In this document: in pieces, positions 1 to 10,553 of the stretch
How positions within the stretch are numbered: the first letter of the stretch is position 1
Layout: the number at the start of each line of letters is the position of its first letter
Program-made: the position numbers and the translations under genes
The notes under the pieces: model-generated
Told to the model about the DNA's origin: nothing
What the model saw: only the letters and a program-made list of their open reading frames with translations
Database searches by the model: none
Assembly (NCBI GenBank): GCA_014730235.1
Contig: WJIO01000163.1
Span: 1 to 10,553 of the forward strand
Source of the DNA: Candidatus Poribacteria bacterium
GTDB lineage: Bacteria; Poribacteria; DTPJ01; WJIO01
DNA: 10,553 nucleotides
Reading direction: 5' to 3'

Positions 1-284
1 GCTCCATTGGCATCGAAACCCATAAGGATGTTCTTATTGGGCAATGGGATGTAAACTCCTAAATCAAAACCTATACCTCCGAAATGAGTATCAAAAGATT
101 CAAATGTCTTTTTCCAATCTTCTGAATAAGTAATGCTAGAATATCCTAATCCAAGGTGTATATAAAAAGATTTTTCTTGTTTAACAGGCTTTTCCTGCGC
201 AAAAACTTGATTTGACAAGACAGAAAACAGCAGAATTGTTATTAAAACTACTGGAAAATTATAGATTTTACTTATTTTATTCAT
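1..284 (-). CDS. Exported beta-barrel-like protein, N-terminal part (cut by window edge)
   Basis: The frame is open from an ATG at 284 to the left window edge, giving 94 residues of an incomplete protein. It starts MNKISKIYNF and has a Sec signal peptide: a charged N-terminus, a hydrophobic core at about residues 10-24, and a likely signal peptidase I site after VFA at residue 29. The mature part alternates polar and hydrophobic residues with aromatic and glycine patches (FYIHLGLGYSS, FGGIGFDLGVYIPL), which is typical of outer-membrane beta strands. An AAAGGA Shine-Dalgarno site lies about ten bases before the ATG. It sits 102 bases downstream of the lipoprotein gene and may share its transcript. 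The export signal is clear. The outer-membrane barrel call is inference from strand texture, and the specific family is unknown. Confidence 0.7.
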   Translation of the reverse strand, partial: MNKISKIYNFPVVLITILLFSVLSNQVFAQEKPVKQEKSFYIHLGLGYSSITYSEDWKKTFESFDTHFGGIGFDLGVYIPLPNKNILMGFDANG

Positions 285-337
285 TTAAATTAATTCCTTT
301 CTCTTAGCTGTTAATGTATAACCATCTACAGCCAAGT

Positions 338-368
338 TGTTATCAGGATAATAACACTAAGTGTTATC
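338..368. repeat. Overlapping inverted repeats between lipoprotein and exported-protein genes
   Basis: TGTTATC occurs at 338-344 and again at 362-368, and its complement ATAACA lies between them at 351-356. The central copy can pair with either flank. The better hairpin is ATAACAC-TAA-GTGTTAT (351-367). It lies about 20 bases after the lipoprotein stop on the minus strand but has no U-tract, so it is a weak terminator at best. It could be an operator or an mRNA processing element for the downstream gene. Confidence 0.35.
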
Positions 369-386
369 CCTTTTGTTTGGCTCGGA

Positions 387-902
387 CTAGAGAAGAGCAG
401 GAGGCACTGATGATGATGTTTTTTGCCAGACATCCGTTTCTGAGCAACTTATTCCACAAGAACCAGAGGCAAGGAATGTTGTAAGTTTATTGCCGCTAAC
501 CTCGTATTTCAGGCTGTAATCGCAGGCTGGACTAACAGACTGAAAATAAAGGGTATCATTAGTTGCGAGTTTGCAGGTAGCAACAGTTGTTGTTGTTTGT
601 CCATTAATGATTATTTCTTGTGACAATCTGCCATCGGATGTGATAGTCATTTTGCCCGAATAGCTAATAAAATCATCCTGTGTAATTCTGTTTCCATTAT
701 CACAAGTTACGATAACTCCGATCAAGTTATATGTCCCCTGTAAATCGTATAGAGTGATGGAAGTATCATCAATTACAAGTTCTCTTTTAACCTCTTCTTC
801 TCCCTCATCCTCACCACAACCACAGAAAAGAACTATAGAAAATGTGATTGAAATTAAAATACATAGTATTTTGCATTGCACAATGCTCTTATTAAGAAAC
901 AT
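387..902 (-). CDS. Cys-rich lipoprotein with lipocalin-like beta pattern
   Basis: This 171-residue protein has a type II signal peptide: basic and hydrophobic residues 5-26, then a lipobox ending FCGC with Cys29 as the probable lipidated residue. A strongly acidic linker follows (EDEGEEE, 31-37). The mature domain reads as successive short beta strands (GTYNLIGV, GKMTITSDGRLSQEI, YSLKYEVSGNKLTTF) and holds five cysteines at 67, 110, 127, 149 and 153, which suggests disulfides in the periplasm or at the surface. The strand order and closing DVWQK resemble small lipocalin-like lipoproteins, but I cannot name a family. Translation signals are excellent: AAGGAGGA lies 8-9 bases before the ATG. 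It is on the same strand as the 67-residue gene upstream, but a hairpin lies between them. The role is unknown. Confidence 0.82.
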   Translation of the reverse strand: MFLNKSIVQCKILCILISITFSIVLFCGCGEDEGEEEVKRELVIDDTSITLYDLQGTYNLIGVIVTCDNGNRITQDDFISYSGKMTITSDGRLSQEIIINGQTTTTVATCKLATNDTLYFQSVSPACDYSLKYEVSGNKLTTFLASGSCGISCSETDVWQKTSSSVPPALL

Positions 903-941
903 TATCTTTCTCCTCCTTCTATGTTGACATTAACAATAAGG

Positions 942-970
942 AATGGATGGGCTGAATTAACCCATCCATT
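942..970 (-). terminator. Perfect 10-bp hairpin after the 67-residue gene
   Basis: AATGGATGGG (942-951) and CCCATCCATT (961-970) are exact reverse complements around a 9-base loop. The hairpin starts 15 bases after the stop codon at 985-987. On the minus strand the bases after the stem are CCTTATTGTT, a poor but somewhat U-rich tail. It probably terminates or attenuates transcription between the small gene and the lipoprotein gene. Confidence 0.6.
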
Positions 971-984
971 CGTCCATAGGAATT

Positions 985-1188
985 TTACTTTTTCCTATCA
1001 CCTTTAGACCAGCCGAAGATAGAATTAATAGCTTTATGCTCATGACTGCTTCCATCTTTATCATGATCTACAACTGTATCCACTTTTGTACGGATTCTGT
1101 TGAGATCGATGTCTGTGCTAGTCCCGTCCTTGTAGTTATAAGTGACTCTTGTCTTTCCACCGCTGATTTTTGATTCACGTCTTCTCAT
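985..1188 (-). CDS. Small hypothetical protein, 67 residues
   Basis: I do not recognise this protein. It is short, highly charged and soluble, with a basic start (MRRRESKISGGKTRVTYNY), a central DGTSTDIDLNRIRTKVDTV stretch and a basic end (GWSKGDRKK). No membrane segment, cysteine or known motif is visible. The middle suggests two beta strands and a helix. It is supported as a gene by a good AAGGAG Shine-Dalgarno site 8 bases before the ATG, a perfect hairpin 15 bases after the stop, and a promoter-like TATAAT about 105 bases upstream. It therefore looks like its own transcription unit, though the short length leaves some doubt. Confidence 0.6.
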   Translation of the reverse strand: MRRRESKISGGKTRVTYNYKDGTSTDIDLNRIRTKVDTVVDHDKDGSSHEHKAINSIFGWSKGDRKK

Positions 1189-1443
1189 TGTAAAAACTCC
1201 TTTAGTTTTGCAAATCAGGCATAGTATCAGGATTCTGCGTTAAGATGCATATTGGATCGGGGAAAAGAGTGTGGTATTGATTAAGCAAAAACCAATTATA
1301 CCGATTGGTTTCACTATATATACAGTAAAATTATCAACTTACCGTGATTAAAATTATTTTTTTTTAGGATTTTCTTGATTTTAAAGAAGACTAGAAATAT
1401 GTAGGAGAGAGTAAAGACCAAGGTATGATTTAACTGAGATAAA
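1189..1443. other. Gene-free AT-rich gap before the small gene
   Basis: These 255 bases have no plausible gene on either strand. They hold the end-of-operon hairpin on the right (1418-1457), a run of nine T at 1357-1365, and the TATAAT/inverted-repeat element at 1289-1311. The rest would be the untranslated leader of the small gene. This is the natural boundary between the sigma/NTPase module and the envelope-protein genes. Confidence 0.6.
1289..1311 (-). promoter_or_regulatory. TATAAT -10 box inside an inverted-repeat operator candidate
   Basis: AAACCAAT (1289-1296) and ATTGGTTT (1304-1311) are exact 8-base inverted arms with a 7-base spacer. On the minus strand a perfect TATAAT -10 element (complement at 1295-1300) lies in the middle. 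It is oriented towards the small gene, with a predicted leader of about 100 bases. No good -35 TTGACA is visible at 16-18 bases upstream, which fits a promoter needing an activator or one of weak type. A repressor on the dyad would cover the -10 box. Confidence 0.45.
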
Positions 1444-1468
1444 TCAGTCAACCTTGGCTTTTTGTTTT
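1418..1468. terminator. End-of-operon hairpin overlapping the NTPase stop codon
   Basis: CCAAGGT (1418-1424) pairs with ACCTTGG (1451-1457), and inside it ATGATTTA (1425-1432) pairs mostly with TAAATCA (1440-1446), leaving a short loop. The structure includes the NTPase stop codon at 1444-1446. Read on the minus strand it closes the sigma-to-NTPase operon but is followed only by TCTTTACTC. Read on the plus strand it is followed by CTTTTTGTTTTATTG, a classic intrinsic-terminator tail. It may work in both directions. Confidence 0.55.
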
Positions 1469-3468
1469 ATTGCTTCTTTGAAGGATTCGTTGTTTATAAG
1501 ATCATTGACTGCTCTTCCTGTATCAGCCCAGTTAGAGCCTGCTATTATAGCCACCAAGTTGCCATTGACTTCATCGAACCAAATACCATGAAGGAGAAAT
1601 TCTGATGATATGAATTTACTAAAACTACCTATTGTATCCCATAAAGAAAAATCTGTCACCAACTTGCTTACATGATTACCGGTTGATGGGGCAAGCATAC
1701 CACCAAACAGTAATGTAATACTATATTGATTAATAACCTGATATATATTTTCTATTTCATCTGGTGAAATGAACTCCGGTTTTAGATCTGAAATATAATT
1801 ACCCAAATAACAGGCAATTTTATCTGCATATCTTATATCAAATTCATTACTAATAACAGCAAAGGAAATATTTCCACGCAATACTGGTTCCAAAACTTTG
1901 TTAACTTTCTTGATTCTTTCTATAATAATTTTTCTTCTTGGGTCTGATTGATCCATCAAATCTAAAACTTTATTATAAAGTTCCGATACCAGAACACTTG
2001 TAGAAATATTACATAGTAATAAATCAGCGGCTTTTATATAATACTCAACAGCTTTATCACGATATAAATTGGTATTTAAACATTTTTGAGATTTATAGGC
2101 CTTCTCATAGGCCATAGCTGTGCATCTTATCTTTTGTGCTGAAGTTTCAAAATCCTCTAAATTTATAAAATGCAAACGTTTCTCGAAATTCTCTGCACTT
2201 TTTGTAAAAACACCACCTCTCCAGTAATAATACCCACATAAATGAAAACTACCACTGATTTTTTCTTTTTCATTTTCTGGATACTTCATCCTTATTTGTT
2301 CTGAAATTTCGGCAGCTTTTATGTAGCAACCCCTTGAATCAAAGCCAATAATATCTGCTAACCACCCTAACTCATACCAACAGCTGGGTTTTTCTTCTAT
2401 ATTACCCTTGGTATCCAAATACACTGTTATAGAACTTGCCAGTATATTGAGATCATCAAACAGCGTTTTTCCCTGCTTACCCAATTTCAGGACATCTTCC
2501 ACTAACAGATGAAACAATTCATGTATGATTTGATATGCTTCATCAAGATTTGGATGAGAAAAAGATAAATACTTATTTATTGCTTCGGATAATTCCTTGT
2601 ATTCATTGAGAATCCCTATTTTTTCTTTATTAATATGGATATAGTAACTATAAAAAAGATCCCTGTATATTTCAAATGAAATTAATCTTTTCTTAGCTGA
2701 TACATTCTGGATAGTATCATATAGATTATCTGCCAAATTCAAATACAGTTCTTTGATATTGGCATACTGATACACGATTTTATCTTTATGCTTTTCAAAA
2801 GCCTGATAAAGAAGATCATGGCTTATTTCCAAAGTATTCCCCAGCAGCAAATTCTTTCGGCAGATAACGAGGTCATCCTCAATCATGTTATTTAACACAT
2901 CTTTAAAATTTCCCAGATCATTTCCCAGATCGTTTTTCCATATGCTTTTTATCAGGTTCTCTGGACTCATCCCAAGATAATTATCCATCATGACAATTAT
3001 ACTGATGATATCCTGATATTCCTTACTATACTCACAAAACAAACGATAAACTACATTAATGATCGCATCTGTCTGGTCTGCATGACCTGCTTCTTCTAAA
3101 GGTGTTTCTGTCCTTGCTAACTTGGAAAGTAAAAAAAGGGCATATGGATTAAATTTAATATTATTGAGAGCTTGTTCGTATTTTTCCACTAAATTTTCCA
3201 TATTCTTATTCTTTATAAATAACTGAAGAGATTCCGGTGTAAGTCCCTGGACATTCATTTGATATACGTTTTCAGGAAGAATGCCCTCATCCTCAATACT
3301 TCTATATGTATCAGTTCTAATTCCTATTATAACCTTGCAGTTAGTCGTTATCATATTAAATAAGTCGGAATTCAGGAAATACTTAACATCATTACCACTT
3401 AATTTGATGCCATGATGGGTTTCTTCAATTATCAGATGAAGAACTTCATATATATCTCTTACCCTCAT
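1444..3468 (-). CDS. STAND-type NTPase C-terminal half with winged helix, TPR-like helices and alpha/beta tail
   Basis: This is the second half of the interrupted composite protein, numbered from an in-frame ATG at 3468. Residues 10-17 (LHLIIEETHH) match a Walker B strand with two acidic residues. Residues 45-51 (KVIIGIR) match the next core strand with its conserved Arg. Residues 150-235 form a winged-helix-like region ending ISHDLLYQAF, as in STAND NTPases. Residues 360-500 are TPR-like helix pairs (YIKAAEISEQI, KAVEYYIKAADLLL). Residues 533-670 form a separate alpha/beta domain (NISFAVIS, ITLLFGGML, NLVAIIAGSNWADT). There is no Walker A in this piece; it lies just before the stop at 3553. 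The ATG at 3468 has no convincing Shine-Dalgarno site, and coding-quality sequence runs upstream to 3552, so independent translation from here is doubtful. Confidence 0.75.
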   Translation of the reverse strand: MRVRDIYEVLHLIIEETHHGIKLSGNDVKYFLNSDLFNMITTNCKVIIGIRTDTYRSIEDEGILPENVYQMNVQGLTPESLQLFIKNKNMENLVEKYEQALNNIKFNPYALFLLSKLARTETPLEEAGHADQTDAIINVVYRLFCEYSKEYQDIISIIVMMDNYLGMSPENLIKSIWKNDLGNDLGNFKDVLNNMIEDDLVICRKNLLLGNTLEISHDLLYQAFEKHKDKIVYQYANIKELYLNLADNLYDTIQNVSAKKRLISFEIYRDLFYSYYIHINKEKIGILNEYKELSEAINKYLSFSHPNLDEAYQIIHELFHLLVEDVLKLGKQGKTLFDDLNILASSITVYLDTKGNIEEKPSCWYELGWLADIIGFDSRGCYIKAAEISEQIRMKYPENEKEKISGSFHLCGYYYWRGGVFTKSAENFEKRLHFINLEDFETSAQKIRCTAMAYEKAYKSQKCLNTNLYRDKAVEYYIKAADLLLCNISTSVLVSELYNKVLDLMDQSDPRRKIIIERIKKVNKVLEPVLRGNISFAVISNEFDIRYADKIACYLGNYISDLKPEFISPDEIENIYQVINQYSITLLFGGMLAPSTGNHVSKLVTDFSLWDTIGSFSKFISSEFLLHGIWFDEVNGNLVAIIAGSNWADTGRAVNDLINNESFKEAIKQKAKVD
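2910..2933 (-). repeat. 12-base tandem duplication inside the NTPase gene
   Basis: TTCCCAGATCAT (2910-2921) is followed directly by TTCCCAGATCGT, with one mismatch. It encodes NDLGNDLG in the winged-helix region of the NTPase half. It keeps the frame, and is probably a recent slippage insertion of four residues in a surface loop. Confidence 0.6.
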
Positions 3469-3552
3469 AATGATGTTACCCAGATGTTCGGCAATAGTCT
3501 GCTCCAGTTCTATATCAAATTTCTTTAATCTCAGAAAAAAGCCGGTCTTTAA

Positions 3553-5151
3553 TTATCTTAAAGCGAGGATTTGGTAACTTTTACCTACTCCTGGATCTCC
3601 ATAAATTATAAGATAACGATGATTTTCCATCACTTTAACCAGATTGTCCTCCCTGCCCGTGTGAATAATTTCAGGCAGTACCTCTACTTTCTCAAACCAT
3701 CGCTTTTCTTCCTCAGATAAAGTCGAAAGGCTTAAATCATCTGTTTCAGGTGCTCTATAAACTGAGCTACTTATGCCTTTCATCTGTTTTAATGCTATTA
3801 CATCTACAGCGAAAACCCACTCCGCATTTTGAAGCGTATTTTCAGCTTCCTTATTTGCTTGCTCAAAAGTTAGCTTATGCGGTTTGTTAGTTTTCACCCC
3901 ACGGGCAAAACCAGTACATTCCACAAAAATTATGTTGCCATATTTCAACTCATTTAATATATTTTTCTTATTCAACACAGGACGGGCCCCATAAGAACCG
4001 ATCCAGCATCCCATGAAAGCGTGATTTGGAACCCTATTTTTGCCTGTAAATACAATCAACGGATATAATCCAACCATTTCAAGACATGATGCCATTAGCA
4101 GGGATAGGTCAATACAGGTTCCTTTTCCTCTCCTATCCAGTTTATAGGAAGCGAATATGTGCTGCGGTAATCTGATAATCTGATATACAATGTCAGTATC
4201 AGGGATACTATCAGTCCAGGATTCTGTGTAAAATATGTCTCTACTTTCTGAAATACATTTATATAAAGACTCCAGAACTGTAAGTTCTTTATTTTCGTCG
4301 CGAGAGTTTACAACCAGATTAAAAGAATCAAATCCTGAAGTTTCTTTGAGATATGTATGGGAATCTTCTATTATTCGTTCTATAACAATATCGTCAGGTA
4401 AGGTTAATGCTGCAACAGTCTTACAAGCAAAACCCTCCTGCGGTAAATATCTGTAACCAAGAATATTTATTTTACTGTTTAACGCCTCTATCTTTTTGCC
4501 GTTGATTATTACATATAATTGTTTTTGCTCATAATTTTCCAGAGTTTTAAGCTTTTTGTCAAAAACATTTATTTGAGGTTTTTCAAGTTTAATGACACCT
4601 TCAGGATCAATGCCTGGTACCTCGACGAAAAATGGCTCGTTGTAGTCTTCTATCTGTAAACCTATCTTAACGTGAGATGATTTTTCTTTGCCAATATTTC
4701 TGACATAGATATGCCCAATTAATGGTGATTGAAGTTGGTATAAGGCATGATTGATATATTTTGATACAGGAGCATAGACAATCAGATCATCCTGACGAAT
4801 AAATAACCAGTCTTCAGGTATAAAGAACCACGTTATTTCCCCTGTTTTTACAGGTGTCCCAGCTTTTATCTCTCTTTTATTTTGTTCTTCGATTTCCTGA
4901 TTATCTATAAGGCTATATATACTTCCAATGTTTCGTATATACCATTTTTCGTTCTCTTTCCATAACACAGCTTGTTGGTTATTTGCCTCTATATCGGTAT
5001 CTACGCTGAGGTTATTTACAGGTTCTGAAGCTGTAGATTTAGTTCTACCTATAAATATGGGAGATTCAGTGTCAGTGATGATTTGCTCATAACTGTTTTG
5101 GATATCCCAGAACACAAACCTTATTTTTTGCCGACTATGTTTCATCTCCAT
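3553..5151 (-). CDS. FHA-like / beta-sandwich / transglutaminase-like protein ending at a Walker A motif
   Basis: This protein has 532 residues. Residues 30-112 resemble an FHA phosphothreonine-binding domain (FIGRTKS, WYIRNIGS, AGTPVKTGE), though the conserved SxxH is degenerate. Residues 145-235 form a beta-sandwich starting VRNIGKEKSSHVKIGLQI. Residues 320-445 are a transglutaminase-like fold with Cys346 (GTCIDLSLLMASCLEMVGL), His377 (NHAFMGCWIG) and Glu411 (VECTGF) as the candidate catalytic triad. The same Cys/His/Glu wording occurs in DUF4011/DUF3320-type helicase proteins. Residues 513-525 (YLIIYGDPGVGKS) are a complete Walker A strand and P-loop, after which translation stops. It begins 18 bases after the anti-sigma stop, so the two are co-transcribed. 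ATG at 5151 and ATG at 5145 are both possible starts, each with only a weak GAGAG-type ribosome site. Probable role: a signal-gated protease-like or scaffold protein in the cytoplasm. Confidence 0.8.
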   Translation of the reverse strand: MEMKHSRQKIRFVFWDIQNSYEQIITDTESPIFIGRTKSTASEPVNNLSVDTDIEANNQQAVLWKENEKWYIRNIGSIYSLIDNQEIEEQNKREIKAGTPVKTGEITWFFIPEDWLFIRQDDLIVYAPVSKYINHALYQLQSPLIGHIYVRNIGKEKSSHVKIGLQIEDYNEPFFVEVPGIDPEGVIKLEKPQINVFDKKLKTLENYEQKQLYVIINGKKIEALNSKINILGYRYLPQEGFACKTVAALTLPDDIVIERIIEDSHTYLKETSGFDSFNLVVNSRDENKELTVLESLYKCISESRDIFYTESWTDSIPDTDIVYQIIRLPQHIFASYKLDRRGKGTCIDLSLLMASCLEMVGLYPLIVFTGKNRVPNHAFMGCWIGSYGARPVLNKKNILNELKYGNIIFVECTGFARGVKTNKPHKLTFEQANKEAENTLQNAEWVFAVDVIALKQMKGISSSVYRAPETDDLSLSTLSEEEKRWFEKVEVLPEIIHTGREDNLVKVMENHRYLIIYGDPGVGKSYQILALR

Positions 5152-5169
5152 CTCTCTTTAATTATATAC

Positions 5170-5964
5170 CTAACATATAATGTCAAATTGACCGGTATCT
5201 ACATTCCTGAACTCAGCCAGTAGATAATCCGCTTCCTCAATATTCTCAAATGTAGAAACATAAACGTCCGTCGGATTTTCTCTGCTAACAAGTATAGCTA
5301 AAGGCGGAGGTTTTTTCATGTCATTTGCCCATAATTTAACTGATATACGTCCTTGACGGCTATCCGATACTACTTCAATAATTTTGTTGTCTTCTAACCT
5401 GATTTCTGATGTCACTGATTGAGATACACGGGCATCTATGTCAGCCAATGACTCAAGTTCTGATACTGCTTCTTCTACATTTTGCTGTAATACCAGATCA
5501 CTTGCCTTTTCAATTTTGTTAGTTATCCTGTCCTGATTACCATCGCCTATTCCTGCAGCTAATGGTTTTAATCTGAAACCATATTCACCCGGCATCGTAC
5601 CTCTTGCAAGGGTTGTTAGATTTCTTATTCTGTCGATTAATACATGGACTGATAGTTCAATGCCTTCTGTAAAACGCTTAAAGCAATCTCTTATCTGTTC
5701 AGTCAGGTTTGGATTTGCTTCTGAAATTCTTTCCAGGGATTCTAAAATTTTTAGATCCCTATTTATTTTTCTGTGTTCAGCAATACTCCATGAATTCCAT
5801 ATTGAATTAAAATTATCCCGAAGGTAAAACAGGGTTTCTATCCTCATGGAACATTCTTCACATTCGGCAGTATGTTTATCTACTTGAACTATTTCATCAA
5901 ATGATGCTTCGTTGGATATATATCTTGAGATTATATCTTCACTTAAGTGTTGCATTTTAGTCAC
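5170..5964 (-). CDS. Soluble zinc-motif anti-sigma-like protein with C-terminal beta domain
   Basis: This protein has 264 residues. The N-terminus carries the zinc-binding anti-sigma (ZAS, zf-HC2-like) signature HxxxCxxC at His31, Cys35 and Cys38 (KHTAECEECS), after a helical HLSEDIISRYI segment. Such proteins hold ECF sigma factors inactive. There is no membrane segment, so it acts in the cytoplasm. Residues 60-120 are helical, and residues 165-264 form a beta-rich domain (RLEDNKIIEVVS, GRISVKLWA, PLAILVS) of unknown function, perhaps a sensor. It follows the sigma gene by 135 bases and precedes the FHA gene by 18. The start given is GTG; ATG at 5955, with GGTGA five bases ahead, is as likely and would remove three residues. 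Pairing with the adjacent sigma factor is inference from motif and order. Confidence 0.75.
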   Translation of the reverse strand: MTKMQHLSEDIISRYISNEASFDEIVQVDKHTAECEECSMRIETLFYLRDNFNSIWNSWSIAEHRKINRDLKILESLERISEANPNLTEQIRDCFKRFTEGIELSVHVLIDRIRNLTTLARGTMPGEYGFRLKPLAAGIGDGNQDRITNKIEKASDLVLQQNVEEAVSELESLADIDARVSQSVTSEIRLEDNKIIEVVSDSRQGRISVKLWANDMKKPPPLAILVSRENPTDVYVSTFENIEEADYLLAEFRNVDTGQFDIIC

Positions 5965-6047
5965 CGACCTATATTAGTTTTCACAGCATTGAAACATGTA
6001 AAATAAGATTAAAGATAAAACAAAATTTTGCAGTAGTTATGGCTCTA

Positions 6048-6061
6048 TATGTATATACATA
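6048..6061. repeat. Perfect 14-base palindrome in the sigma/anti-sigma gap
   Basis: TATGTATATACATA is its own reverse complement. CTATA at 6045-6049 and TATAG at 6064-6068 give a second overlapping pairing. It lies midway between the sigma stop and the anti-sigma start in very AT-rich sequence, about 85 bases before the anti-sigma start. A dimeric regulator site is possible, but base composition alone makes short palindromes like this fairly easy to find. No convincing promoter boxes are visible in this gap. Confidence 0.35.
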
Positions 6062-6099
6062 CTTATAGGTAAGTTCTCGTGATAAAAAACTAAATAATT

Positions 6100-7140
6100 T
6101 TATGAACTGTCATTTTTTTGATCGCATGGTGGGATATTGCGCAGTTTACACTTATTACAGTTTCTTGGATTAGTTGCAGATGTTTTAACTATATCAACTA
6201 TTTCATAGACATCTCTGGGTTGCTCTTCTTTTTCCCTTATTTTGACATTGAGATATATTTCAAAACTTTTTACTATTTTATCACACCAATCCGATATAGA
6301 ATTAGTATATTGTCCTTCTTTTGAATAATCCCTTAGACATGTTGTCCCAACAATGTTGTTACCTAAAATGTTTAGTATTTCTTCAAGATCAATTTTATTA
6401 GGTAAATCTGCAAAAAGTGAATTGACTCTCATGTTTAGCCTTTTATATAAAGGTTTCAGATGATTTCTAAGTTTTTCTAGCTCTTTTGTATCTAATTCTG
6501 GCTCATAATCTTTGAGAAATGAGTCTGCTAAACTTCTCAAAGGCTTATGTCCCTGTTTTCTGTCAGTTTCTTGGTGTGATCCTATCATTCCTCCATTAAT
6601 TCTTGAGCTATCCTTTTCTTTTGATCTTCTCTTTGATTTGCCATATATTAATTTAGAATAGGCAAAAGCTAACTGTTGATGAGGATATCCACCACAGAGG
6701 AATAGTATACGGAATAGCTCCATAAAAGCCCGTTTTTTCATTTCTAATTCTTCTTTTTTTAACAGTATAATATCAGGTCTTCTAAATTCACTAGTTTTAT
6801 TTATTGCAGAATCCAATGAATCATACCTTGGTTCCTTTTTTCTTTGAGGGAAATAATCCTCTATTTCGTTCTTTGCAAGAGTATAAACATACTTACCAAA
6901 AGTACCTCTTTGAGGGTCATATTTATTTATTTTATCTGTTACTTTTATCCATGTATTATGTAATATATTTCTGGCATCATCTTCGTAATTATATGTTCTT
7001 GTTTTTATCTGTCTGATTATATATTTGAATAATATTTCATTATATTTTTCAGATAATTTGACTAATACAGATTTGTCACCTTTTTGAAATTTTTCTATTA
7101 ATTTGTTTTCTTCTTCTGCTGAAATCTCTTTTTGTTTCAC
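6100..7140 (-). CDS. ECF-like sigma-70 family factor with long non-standard C-terminal extension
   Basis: This protein has 346 residues. Residues 8-110 are a clear sigma-70 region 2: 2.1/2.2 with YNEILFKYIIRQI and YEDDARNILHNTWIKV, then 2.3/2.4 with GTFGKYVYTLAKNEIEDYF and the basic QRKK, which bind core polymerase and the -10 DNA. An ordinary ECF factor is about 160-200 residues and has a region 4 helix-turn-helix. Here no recognisable region 4 follows. Instead there are about 220 residues beginning AFMELFRILFLCGGYPHQQL, a basic linker KSKRRSKEK, more helices, and a C-terminal cysteine cluster at 328, 331 and 339 (CNKCKLRNIPPC) that may bind zinc. AGGAAAGG lies about 8 bases before the ATG. 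It heads the module with the anti-sigma-like and FHA/NTPase genes. Target promoters are unknown. Confidence 0.82.
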   Translation of the reverse strand: MKQKEISAEEENKLIEKFQKGDKSVLVKLSEKYNEILFKYIIRQIKTRTYNYEDDARNILHNTWIKVTDKINKYDPQRGTFGKYVYTLAKNEIEDYFPQRKKEPRYDSLDSAINKTSEFRRPDIILLKKEELEMKKRAFMELFRILFLCGGYPHQQLAFAYSKLIYGKSKRRSKEKDSSRINGGMIGSHQETDRKQGHKPLRSLADSFLKDYEPELDTKELEKLRNHLKPLYKRLNMRVNSLFADLPNKIDLEEILNILGNNIVGTTCLRDYSKEGQYTNSISDWCDKIVKSFEIYLNVKIREKEEQPRDVYEIVDIVKTSATNPRNCNKCKLRNIPPCDQKNDSS

Positions 7141-7198
7141 AAGTATACCTTTCCTAATTCTACTGGAAATAGAAAATATGATTCTTCAGTAACGTTTT

Positions 7199-7229
7199 CT
7201 GAATTTTAACAATATAATGTTAAAATCAG
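7199..7229. promoter_or_regulatory. Inverted repeat upstream of the sigma gene
   Basis: ATTTTAACA (7203-7211) and TGTTAAAAT (7218-7226) are exact 9-base inverted arms with a 6-base spacer. CTG (7199-7201) and CAG (7227-7229) extend the pairing to 12 bases with one bulged A. It lies about 60-90 bases before the sigma ATG in the 159-base gap after the helicase gene. With weak A/T pairs and no U-tract it is a poor terminator, so an operator or promoter element for the sigma operon is the better reading. Confidence 0.45.
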
Positions 7230-7299
7230 AAATAAATATTATGGTTCGACTCAGTGAATAAATTGAATTGTAATATTCAAATAGGAATCTCAAGATGAT

Positions 7300-10200
7300 C
7301 TAATATCCTATTAGACAATTTAAGAAATCTATTACTTTCCCTTTATTTAGTTGATCGTGACAGAATTGGTTGCGATAGTTACGCAGACAACCATAACAGC
7401 TTGTATTTCTTTCCTCTCCGCCACAATCACAACTTTTAAGCCTTATTAAGGTGGTTTTTAAAATTTTCAGCAAACTCTCTCTGCTTTCAGCTATGCGACG
7501 CACATGACCAGCGCCACCTGGAACATCATCAAAAAGTATTAAAGCGGGTATCGCCGGATCCCCTTCAAATGGATACAAACAACCATCGAGATCTTGACGA
7601 TCAATATCAAGTGATTCACTAGCACCCTCAAGTATAGCATATAGTAGTGAAAGCCAAAAACCACTATCTTCCCTACGATATCCAATAAAACGAAGCTGTA
7701 GAACATCCGTTTTGAATTCATGACCCAATGAGCGACGGGAAAACCTACCATGACATTCACTTCGCCATGGTGTTTCATGTTTATCTGGTATTGATTCATT
7801 ACCTAAAATAGAGTATCCACAAAGACTACAAATCCTGAATTCCTGATATCCTGCGTGATTTATAATCGCCATCTGACCATCAGTAGCGGGTATTGCCAAT
7901 AGTGTAGTATCATCTAATTTTAACCTTGTTTCTTCGCCTTCTTTTGCTTTACCTGAGTAATATGTTCTTGTGGTGTAAGTTCTCTCAGGACGTTTTTCTC
8001 CTGGTTTTTGTGGTTCATCTGCACTTACAATAAAACCAAACTCAGGGATCACGAAAACTCCCTGGTTCTTTCCTGCTAATGGTTTTTTGCATACATTGCA
8101 AATATCTAAACTTCGGTCTACGTCAGCTAATACGCTTTGATAACACTGGCAATACTCACAAACGGCATACCGATATTTAGGCCATTCTCGATTAGGTATT
8201 CTTTTCAAGTATCGACTGGTCCAAAGCTTCCCTCCAGCTACAACCTGACTACTTGGTGCATATTCTGATAAGGCTATCCTTAAATCGCGATCAAGCTCTA
8301 ATCTTTTGGCATCATCCGAATGATGAGAGATCATTAATTCTACAACATCCACAGGGAAACCATACTTAGGTATAACATTCCGACTGGACAAAAAATTGAT
8401 AAGGTACCTACGTTTTATAGTGTTAATCGCTCTTAGCAAATAATCAGATGGTTTATTTTCTCGTATCATTTTTCTGCGGATCTTATCCAATTCTTTTACA
8501 TCACTCTCCACTTCATCAGAGCACCTAAATAGAATACCTTCATTCTCATCCAGTAAACCTGATAACCAATCCCAATTGCCTATACCTAAAGATGAATGGA
8601 AAATTTCCGGAACAATCCGACATAGGGCTTGTTTCAAATTGTCTGGTTTATTATTCAAGTATTGAGCAAGAAGCTCAGGTCCAGCTTTACTATCACCGTC
8701 GGTAAAGAAAAAGCAATCAACATCCTTAAACATCTCTGGATATATTCTCCAAAAAGAAGCAATCGCTGTAGCGTATATATGCCTTTTTATGATCTTTTCG
8801 TTTTTGATCTCAAAATGAGGGGAGTGAATAATTCCTGATACCATTTGCTCAGGATTGCTGAAAAAATTTAGGTCATGCGGTTTACGTTGAGCAAAGGTAA
8901 GAGCAAAAGCAGCTGAGTCAGTGCGTCTACCTGCCCTTCCTGCCCTTTGCACATAATTAGCGGAGGATGGCGGAACGTTGCGCATGAAGACAGTTTCTAA
9001 TTCACCGACATCTACGCCTAGCTCAAAAGTCGTAGAGCAACTCAAAACATTAACATCACCCTGTACGAATTGCATTTGCAATTCTGCTGCAGCCTCGCTG
9101 GATAACTGTGCAGTATGTTCTTCTACTCTCATTCCTATGGGTTCTACACCCAAATAAAGGTTTCGATAATGGTTATTGGGAAGAATTTCTTCTGGGTGAC
9201 ATTCCGTTAATTTTCCATCACACCTATACGAGGGACAAACTTTTCTTAGATTGAATAAAGTAAGATTATTACAACGTTCACACCAGTACCATTTTATATT
9301 ATTATTTATGGTACTTGGTTGGAGCTTCCAGAAATCATATTTCATACGATAAACAGTACCTTCACCTTTCATATTAAATGAGGAAAAGTAGTTATTAAAG
9401 TATAGTATTTTGTGAATAAATCGCCAGATTTTCCTAAGTGTTTCCCTACAGTCTTTCTCTGAGAGGCCTGTTTTCAATTGTTGTGCCAACCGATTAAGAA
9501 AATCCAATCTAGCGTTTATTCTGCCTTTATTTGGACACCAACTATAAATGTGCTTTGATGGAGATGATTGGTTTTCACGAAAATAATGTTCACCCTTTCT
9601 TGGCTTGAAAAAATCATCATCAGGAGATATATTATCAGGAAATACTAATGCTCCTTTCGTCCGGATACTGTCAAGGAGTATCTGAAAGAGTATCCACACC
9701 TCATCTATTAATAAATTCCAAGGGGCATCAAGTAAAGGTTTTGGGGGTTGCCAATTGGAAGGTTTTACCATAGCAAAACCAAGACAACCAAGGCCTTCCA
9801 GACTATTTTGTCTGTTCATAGCAATCAGCTCATAGAATACCCATTTCCAGGCTTCATTAGCTATTTGTTGAAGACTATATTCAGGAAGTATGCTAGAATT
9901 GCTAATGATTTGCTGAAGGGAATCTGCGAGGTCTTGAACTCGCCACTGATTCTTAATAATATCCTGCTTATATGTCTCAATAACCTCCATAATTAAACGT
10001 CTTTGGAGAATCTGCGAATGGGTACTACTAAGATAAGGGGCAAAGAAAGCGGCGTTTTGTCTGCTATCGGAGAAAACCAACAATCGGCGTTTACCTATAG
10101 ACGTATATTCTTTTACATTATCCGATGGCGTTTCTGTTGTGGTTGGGTTCCAATCATCTTCATCTGAAAATTCGCTTCCCATTTCCATAGAATTATTTTC

Positions 10201-10553
10201 TCTAATATATGGAGGAATATGCTGGAAAAGAGATTCTGCAAGCACACTTGCCGTAGCATCATCACCAGTCAGAAATCGCCAGACAAGACTATTAGGGCTT
10301 TGTTTACCACAAGCAGGACATCGGTATACATTTCCAACTTTAGATTTTACTTTACGAACTGTATATTGGCGAGAATTGCTGCAATTGCATAATTTACCGA
10401 TTAGGTTATACCTATCAATAGCACCGCAGGAAGCACACAGTAAATATCTATTTTCTTCTGGTGTAGAATCAGCCTCGTCTCCTGAACTAACAATTTCATC
10501 CTCATCAATATGAATTTCTGATAGACCTGCATCATCAAGGAGTAAATATTCTA
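7300..10553 (-). CDS. Large DEAD/DEAH-type helicase with C-terminal MZB/DUF1998 zinc region, C-terminal part
   Basis: The frame is open to the right window edge, giving 1083 residues with the N-terminal ATPase lobe missing. A GTG at 10245 is internal: the 102 residues before it are coding and include a zinc motif (CASC, CNC, CPAC at 10309-10437) and RFLTGDD. Numbering from that GTG, LLVFSDSRQNAAFFAPYL (55-72) is the family's second-lobe entry, STTFELGVDVGEL (404-416) is motif V, and NYVQRAGRAGRR (430-441) is motif VI. Further CxxC pairs are at 322/325, 696/699, 716/719 and 806/809. DDVPGGAGHVRR (906-917) and the Cys set 939-962 (CDCGG, CYGCLRNY, FCH) form the MZB/DUF1998 end. Such helicases include MrfA-type repair enzymes and DruE, DrmA/B and DpdJ of defence loci. 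The likely size of over 1500 residues favours a DruE-like protein, which is inference. No partner is visible downstream. Confidence 0.9.
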   Translation of the reverse strand, partial: EYLLLDDAGLSEIHIDEDEIVSSGDEADSTPEENRYLLCASCGAIDRYNLIGKLCNCSNSRQYTVRKVKSKVGNVYRCPACGKQSPNSLVWRFLTGDDATASVLAESLFQHIPPYIRENNSMEMGSEFSDEDDWNPTTTETPSDNVKEYTSIGKRRLLVFSDSRQNAAFFAPYLSSTHSQILQRRLIMEVIETYKQDIIKNQWRVQDLADSLQQIISNSSILPEYSLQQIANEAWKWVFYELIAMNRQNSLEGLGCLGFAMVKPSNWQPPKPLLDAPWNLLIDEVWILFQILLDSIRTKGALVFPDNISPDDDFFKPRKGEHYFRENQSSPSKHIYSWCPNKGRINARLDFLNRLAQQLKTGLSEKDCRETLRKIWRFIHKILYFNNYFSSFNMKGEGTVYRMKYDFWKLQPSTINNNIKWYWCERCNNLTLFNLRKVCPSYRCDGKLTECHPEEILPNNHYRNLYLGVEPIGMRVEEHTAQLSSEAAAELQMQFVQGDVNVLSCSTTFELGVDVGELETVFMRNVPPSSANYVQRAGRAGRRTDSAAFALTFAQRKPHDLNFFSNPEQMVSGIIHSPHFEIKNEKIIKRHIYATAIASFWRIYPEMFKDVDCFFFTDGDSKAGPELLAQYLNNKPDNLKQALCRIVPEIFHSSLGIGNWDWLSGLLDENEGILFRCSDEVESDVKELDKIRRKMIRENKPSDYLLRAINTIKRRYLINFLSSRNVIPKYGFPVDVVELMISHHSDDAKRLELDRDLRIALSEYAPSSQVVAGGKLWTSRYLKRIPNREWPKYRYAVCEYCQCYQSVLADVDRSLDICNVCKKPLAGKNQGVFVIPEFGFIVSADEPQKPGEKRPERTYTTRTYYSGKAKEGEETRLKLDDTTLLAIPATDGQMAIINHAGYQEFRICSLCGYSILGNESIPDKHETPWRSECHGRFSRRSLGHEFKTDVLQLRFIGYRREDSGFWLSLLYAILEGASESLDIDRQDLDGCLYPFEGDPAIPALILFDDVPGGAGHVRRIAESRESLLKILKTTLIRLKSCDCGGEERNTSCYGCLRNYRNQFCHDQLNKGKVIDFLNCLIGY

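What the first reader, a model, noticed from the sequence alone, without database searches (positions are those of the whole stretch)
3536..3600. A single in-frame stop cuts a STAND NTPase between Walker A and Walker B
Translating through 3553-3555 shows GDPGVGKSYQILALR, TAA, then LKTGFFLRLKKFDIELE running without a frame change into the Walker B half. Spacing between the two motifs is normal if TAA is counted as one residue. There is no indel, no second stop, and no good ribosome site before the first ATG of the second half (3468). UAA followed by UUA is not a known readthrough context. Established: Walker A and B must be in one polypeptide for nucleotide hydrolysis in STAND proteins. Inference: a very recent inactivation of a costly immune-type protein, a phase-variable or assembly error, or regulated readthrough.
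Basis: partly seen in the sequence, partly recalled or inferred. Interest (0 to 1): 0.75.

Follow-up and report, generated by a model that had tools for sequence, protein, structure and literature searches.

The report
Recently broken immune-type signalling gene
A bacterial gene for a large immune-type switch protein carries one premature stop signal in the middle of its ATP-binding domain, most likely a very recent loss-of-function mutation, which is an ordinary event in an otherwise little-described three-gene module.

Summary
On the minus strand, an FHA / transglutaminase-like (TGc) / STAND NTPase gene starting at 5151 stops at a TAA (3553-3555), 9 codons after the Walker A lysine codon. 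The same frame then runs open for 702 codons, carrying a Walker B-like motif and nSTAND1-like sequence. In this genome TAA is the commonest stop codon and internal stops are very rare in conserved genes, so neither recoding nor a generally poor assembly explains it. UAAU is the tightest bacterial terminator, so readthrough is unlikely. Relatives carry Walker A and B in one chain, whether fused to TGc or on a kinase-STAND protein; none has a gene boundary between the motifs. Absence of any second lesion bounds the mutation to under about 0.7% neutral divergence. Best explanation: a very recent nonsense mutation that removes the STAND switch but leaves FHA-TGc intact. A sequencing or strain-mixture artefact cannot be excluded without reads. 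The broader context is more interesting than the stop: a sigma factor / zf-HC2 / FHA-TGc operon conserved in another phylum with exchanged C-terminal modules, next to a DruE-like helicase.

The parts
3553..3555 (-). in-frame TAA stop, 9 codons after the Walker A lysine codon
   Evidence: context AGA-TAA-TTA; only stop in 1235 codons
3553..5151 (-). first open frame: 532 aa, FHA + transglutaminase-like + P-loop of a STAND NTPase
1444..3552 (-). same frame after the stop: 702 codons (first ATG at 3468), Walker B-like motif, nSTAND1-like region, C-terminus with no family match
4846..5052 (-). FHA domain (weak match, E 0.0018; homologue L122 matches FHA at E 1.2e-11)
3778..4752 (-). Ig-like + transglutaminase-like (DUF4011/ProA-type) region; NCBIfam NF058533 E 7.4e-32; conserved C346/H377/E411 at codons 4114-4116, 4021-4023, 3919-3921
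3577..3600 (-). Walker A GDPGVGKS
   Evidence: nSTAND3 match crosses the stop, residues 502-537
3421..3435 (-). Walker B-like LIIEE; its first glutamate is 52 residues after the Walker A lysine
2803..3363 (-). region matching nSTAND1 profile positions 144-342 of 379 (weak, below cut-off)
5170..5964 (-). zf-HC2 protein, 264 aa, anti-sigma-like; homologous to the zf-HC2 proteins of G369 operons
6100..7140 (-). sigma-70 region 2 (ECF-like) factor with C-terminal extension (CGG.PHQ, ISDWC motifs)
7300..10551 (-). C-terminal 1083 aa of a DruE/YprA-type helicase with MZB domain, cut by the contig end; neighbour, not shown to be part of the module

Best explanation
The gene encoded one about 1235-residue protein: phosphopeptide-binding FHA, a transglutaminase-fold thiol enzyme (probably a protease or peptidase-like effector) and a STAND NTPase with a C-terminal sensor region. 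It lies in an operon with a sigma factor and a zf-HC2 protein. A single recent nonsense mutation in the first helix after the P-loop ends translation there. Shown: the stop, the open frame on both sides, the domains, the conserved operon, the one-chain relatives. Inferred: the STAND module can no longer bind or hydrolyse nucleotide as a switch because Walker A and Walker B are no longer in one chain. Also inferred: the 532-residue product keeps an intact FHA-TGc part but loses sensing and oligomerisation, and the downstream 702 codons are hardly translated because there is no start site with a Shine-Dalgarno sequence near the break.
For: Stop and frame. nSTAND3 profile match (Walker A half) continues across the stop to residue 537, and nSTAND1 positions 143-343 match the downstream half, in collinear order (weak scores). 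Relatives of the same kind carry TGc-STAND-TPR in one frame (Streptomyces P0002; G403 locus L137/L163, 934 codons with NB-ARC E 1e-14). In G369 and G386 the STAND is on a downstream kinase-STAND gene; in G369, whose gene is complete, Walker A and B are in one chain. TAA is a real stop here: 33 of 54 long ORFs in six other contigs end in TAA, and about 68 full ABC-transporter domains of this genome hold no internal stop. With no other lesion in 3705 bases, neutral divergence since the mutation is below about 0.67%. UAAU is the strongest terminator. Walker A, Walker B and the arginine are each required in the STAND protein Avs5.
Against: No reads are available, so an error or a minor strain variant is not excluded. 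No close homologue of the downstream half was found in any collection searched, so purifying selection on it cannot be measured and an in-frame deletion at the site cannot be ruled out. The match of the downstream half to STAND profiles is below Pfam's cut-off (E 0.0004 to 0.03). Absence of any further decay is also what functional retention of both halves would give.
Confidence: 0.7

Rival explanations
1. Consensus error or strain mixture in the metagenome assembly: the organism (or most of its population) carries a sense codon.
For: The window is a whole contig of a 451-contig MAG with 4.8% contamination; a single substitution is all that is needed; zero additional decay. The contig is a compositional outlier of the bin (GC 35.0% against 39-43% in six other contigs), so coverage and binning could be atypical.
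Against: About 68 conserved ABC domains (roughly 9,900 codons) of the same assembly show no internal stop; other long genes in the contig are intact.
Confidence: 0.19
2. Functional split: the FHA-TGc protein (532 aa) and the downstream STAND part are made as two polypeptides that cooperate.
For: Both halves are intact and coding-like. FHA-TGc proteins without STAND exist in homologous operons, with STAND on a separate gene.
Against: In those genomes the boundary lies before the P-loop, not between Walker A and B. No start codon with a Shine-Dalgarno sequence follows the stop; the first ATG is codon 29 after it. The break falls inside the first helix of the NTPase core.
Confidence: 0.07
3. Programmed readthrough or recoding of the TAA gives a small amount of full-length protein.
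For: Open frame on both sides without decay; a 6-bp inverted repeat CTTTAA-N5-TTAAAG encloses the stop (chosen after seeing it).
Against: UAAU is the least leaky signal (PMC5289835); RNA folding of the region is not unusual (z -0.22); no Rfam element; TAA ends most genes of this genome.
Confidence: 0.04

Closest known systems
STAND NTPases of nSTAND1/nSTAND3 type (effector - STAND - repeats), as in the conflict systems of PMC7159879 and PMC8195603; Avs5 (PMC12931631) as a studied case
   Same: P-loop, Walker B of hhhhE type, RxD-containing segment after it, long C-terminal region; fused effector at the N-terminus
   Different: here the effector is a DUF4011/ProA-type transglutaminase-like domain plus FHA, and the gene is interrupted; profile matches are weak
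DUF4011-DUF3320 helicases / anti-phage protein ProA (NCBIfam NF058533)
   Same: Ig-like plus transglutaminase-like region, about 25% identity over 330 residues with conserved Cys-His-Glu
   Different: ProA-type proteins are about 1900 aa with helicase and DUF3320; none of that is here
TGc-STAND-TPR proteins of a Streptomyces plasmid (P0002) and genome G403 (L137)
   Same: TGc directly followed by STAND in one chain
   Different: different STAND subfamily (nSTAND5 / NB-ARC), no FHA, no stop
sigma factor / zf-HC2 / FHA-TGc operons of G369 and G386
   Same: same genes in the same order; TGc proteins of G369 24-28% identical
   Different: C-terminal Clp_N-like module instead of STAND; in G369 C186 and G386 a kinase-STAND is encoded downstream; not interrupted
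Druantia DruE
   Same: neighbouring helicase matches DruE at E 6e-106
   Different: no other Druantia gene on this contig; its first part is off the contig

Membership tests
STAND NTPase (intact, functional) | Walker A motif GxxxxGK[ST] | tested here: met
   GDPGVGKS, residues 518-525
STAND NTPase (intact, functional) | Walker B hhhh[D/E] and following STAND elements | tested here: inconclusive
   LIIEE at 573-577, nSTAND1 match 593-783 below cut-off
STAND NTPase (intact, functional) | Walker A and B in one polypeptide | tested here: not met
   TAA between them; readthrough not tested in cells
ProA / DUF4011-DUF3320 helicase | N-terminal Ig-like + transglutaminase-like region | tested here: met
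   NF058533 positions 1-310, E 7.4e-32, far below the full-length cut-off of 1500 bits
ProA / DUF4011-DUF3320 helicase | helicase and DUF3320 regions | tested here: not met
   1235-residue frame has none
Transglutaminase-like thiol enzyme | Cys-His-acid triad | tested here: met
   C346 and H377 invariant, E411 nearly invariant in 57 sequences; Foldseek top hits are transglutaminases
Transglutaminase-like thiol enzyme | catalytic activity | not testable with these tools
   needs assay
Druantia | DruE together with its partner genes (for example DruH in type III) | tested here: inconclusive
   only the C-terminal part of a DruE-like protein is on the contig, contig ends inside it

The most novel reading that the evidence does not exclude
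The sigma / zf-HC2 / FHA-TGc / STAND operon is an undescribed, regulated conflict module with exchangeable C-terminal domains. In this genome the stop is functional: it makes a stand-alone FHA-TGc protein, with rare full-length STAND protein as the sensor.
Probability: 0.05. Interest if true: 0.7.

Novelty: new member of a known kind. Interest (0 to 1): 0.22.

Why it matters
As a mutation it is ordinary: loss of a costly immune-type switch, caught early. The useful part is what the test uncovered. It shows a rare three-gene module (sigma factor with a novel C-terminal part, zf-HC2 protein, FHA plus ProA-type transglutaminase-like enzyme) shared by two phyla and combined with different ATPase or Clp_N modules. 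It links the DUF4011/ProA transglutaminase-like domain to STAND signalling.

Tried and rejected
(1) Homologues of the downstream half in own phylum, 386 genomes across phyla, plasmids, phages and viral contigs: none. (2) genome-contig scans: the N half alone gave nothing; the alignment-based scan returned 80 loci, whose N-half matches are essentially all about 1900-aa DUF4011-type helicases or fragments, none matching the downstream half. (3) AlphaFold2 of the read-through STAND region from a single sequence: mean pLDDT 40, uninformative. (4) hhalign of the window STAND to NB-ARC-type STANDs of relatives: only the P-loop aligned, different subfamily. (5) Frameshift instead of a stop: the other frames are closed and codon usage supports frame 0. 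(6) Hairpin around the stop: a 6-bp inverted repeat exists but the fold is no better than shuffled sequence. (7) PDB sequence search: only chance antibody matches. (8) A paper naming Druantia, sigma factor and STAND together: none in the library.

Full report
Observation. The minus-strand frame from 5151 reads FHA, a transglutaminase-like region and a P-loop GDPGVGKS, then meets TAA at 3553-3555 after ...SYQILALR, and continues without a frame change for 702 codons to a TGA at 1444. It is the only stop in 1235 codons. The downstream half is coding sequence in this frame: its codon usage correlates with the upstream half at r=0.86 in frame 0 and 0.49 or 0.42 in the other frames, and the other frames are closed by stops. 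The distance from the Walker A lysine to the Walker B acid (LIIEE) is 52 residues. Relatives examined here have 43, 69, 69 and 75, and the residue numbers printed for Avs5 give 47 (PMC12931631). The spacing claim therefore holds, at the short end; that there was no in-frame deletion cannot be shown.

Domains. FHA: weak match (E 0.0018, below cut-off), supported by homologue L122 where the same region matches FHA at E 1.2e-11. Residues 134-458 match the first 310 positions of the anti-phage protein ProA model (E 7.4e-32), which is the DUF4011-type Ig-like plus transglutaminase-like region. C346 and H377 are invariant and E411 nearly so in 57 sequences. The alignment-based AlphaFold2 model has pLDDT near 90 over most of residues 110-460, and its best PDB matches are transglutaminases (low TM-scores, which I put down to domain arrangement). 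The STAND assignment rests on the P-loop (nSTAND3, match crossing the stop, 502-537) and on nSTAND1 positions 143-343 matching the downstream half (E 0.0004 in the read-through fragment, 0.01 to 0.03 otherwise). These are weak but collinear, and no family claims the last 450 residues.

Is TAA a stop here? In six other contigs of this genome 33 of 54 long ORFs end in TAA. All 74 ABC-transporter domain matches of the genome were scored with stops counted. None of the full-length ones holds an internal stop, and one weak 31-position match has one. So there is neither recoding nor a high rate of errors or decay. UAAU is described as the strongest bacterial termination signal (PMC5289835). RNA folding of the region is average (z -0.22) and Rfam finds nothing. 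Downstream start sites are poor: the first ATG is codon 29 after the stop without a Shine-Dalgarno sequence.

Relatives. No homologue of either half was found in 84 genomes of the same phylum. Among 386 genomes spread over phyla, only G369 held a close relative of the N half, and none held the downstream half. G369 has two operons, and its congener G386 one partial operon, with a zf-HC2 gene followed by a TGc gene, with FHA in one of them. In both G369 operons a sigma-factor gene precedes them. Sigma and zf-HC2 proteins are homologous to those of the window (BLASTP E 2e-10 and 3e-13; 4e-21 and 1e-8). The G369 TGc proteins end in a Clp_N-like module instead of STAND. At G369 C186 and in G386 a Ser/Thr kinase-STAND protein follows; the G369 one is complete, with TPR repeats and both Walker motifs in one chain. 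TGc fused to STAND and TPR in one chain occurs in a Streptomyces plasmid protein and in G403 (934-codon frame, NB-ARC E 1e-14). No relative has a boundary between Walker A and B, so the split is not ancestral on present evidence.

Age and nature of the lesion. About 4-5% of substitutions in this gene would create a stop. Adding frameshifts at an assumed 0.08 per substitution, absence of a second lesion bounds neutral divergence since the mutation to below about 0.67% (95%). Either the mutation is very recent, or it is not fixed, or it is an error. Reads would decide; none are available.

Function. In Avs5 the Walker A, Walker B and arginine residues are each required for full immunity (PMC12931631). 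With Walker A on a 532-residue fragment and Walker B untranslated, the STAND switch should be dead (inference). The fragment still contains the whole FHA-TGc part, which in G369 is a complete gene on its own with a different C-terminus, so residual or unregulated activity of the TGc part is possible (inference).

Context. The contig is a compositional outlier of the bin (GC 35.0% against 39-43%; tetranucleotide correlation 0.41-0.63 against 0.59-0.75 among other contigs), consistent with an acquired island or with misbinning. Upstream on the same strand lies the C-terminal part of a DruE-type helicase (PADLOC E 6e-106), separated by 159 bases from the sigma gene. Whether it belongs to the module is not shown; the DruE-like neighbourhoods inspected on cyanobacterial plasmids list no gene annotated as a sigma factor beside the helicase.

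Verdict. Observation confirmed; ordinary explanation (recent nonsense mutation, or less likely an artefact). The operon is a new member of the conflict-system kind and deserves a separate look.

Noticed in passing
window 5170-7140; L160 10931-12654; L161 7509-9200: Sigma-70 region-2 factor with a C-terminal extension (CG..PHQ and SDWC motifs) followed by a zf-HC2 protein and a TGc protein, conserved between this MAG and an unrelated phylum: looks like an undescribed three-gene module.
   Followed up: partly
window 7300-10551: C-terminal 1083 aa of a DruE/YprA-type helicase with MZB domain, cut by the contig end.
   Followed up: partly
window 1-10553: GC and tetranucleotide composition differ from six other contigs of the bin: acquired island or misbinned contig.
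   Followed up: partly
window 3547-3563: CTTTAA-N5-TTAAAG inverted repeat enclosing the stop codon; expected 0.01 times in the window for that exact pattern, but the pattern was chosen afterwards and the RNA fold is unremarkable.
   Followed up: partly
L007 2959-4729: In Cyanobacterium HL-69 plasmid the DUF4011-type transglutaminase-like part is a separate 517-aa gene followed by a helicase-related gene: the domain can stand alone.
   Followed up: no
L005 4977-7663: In Novosphingobium THN1 plasmid the DUF4011 helicase gene appears to be interrupted by a transposase insertion.
   Followed up: no
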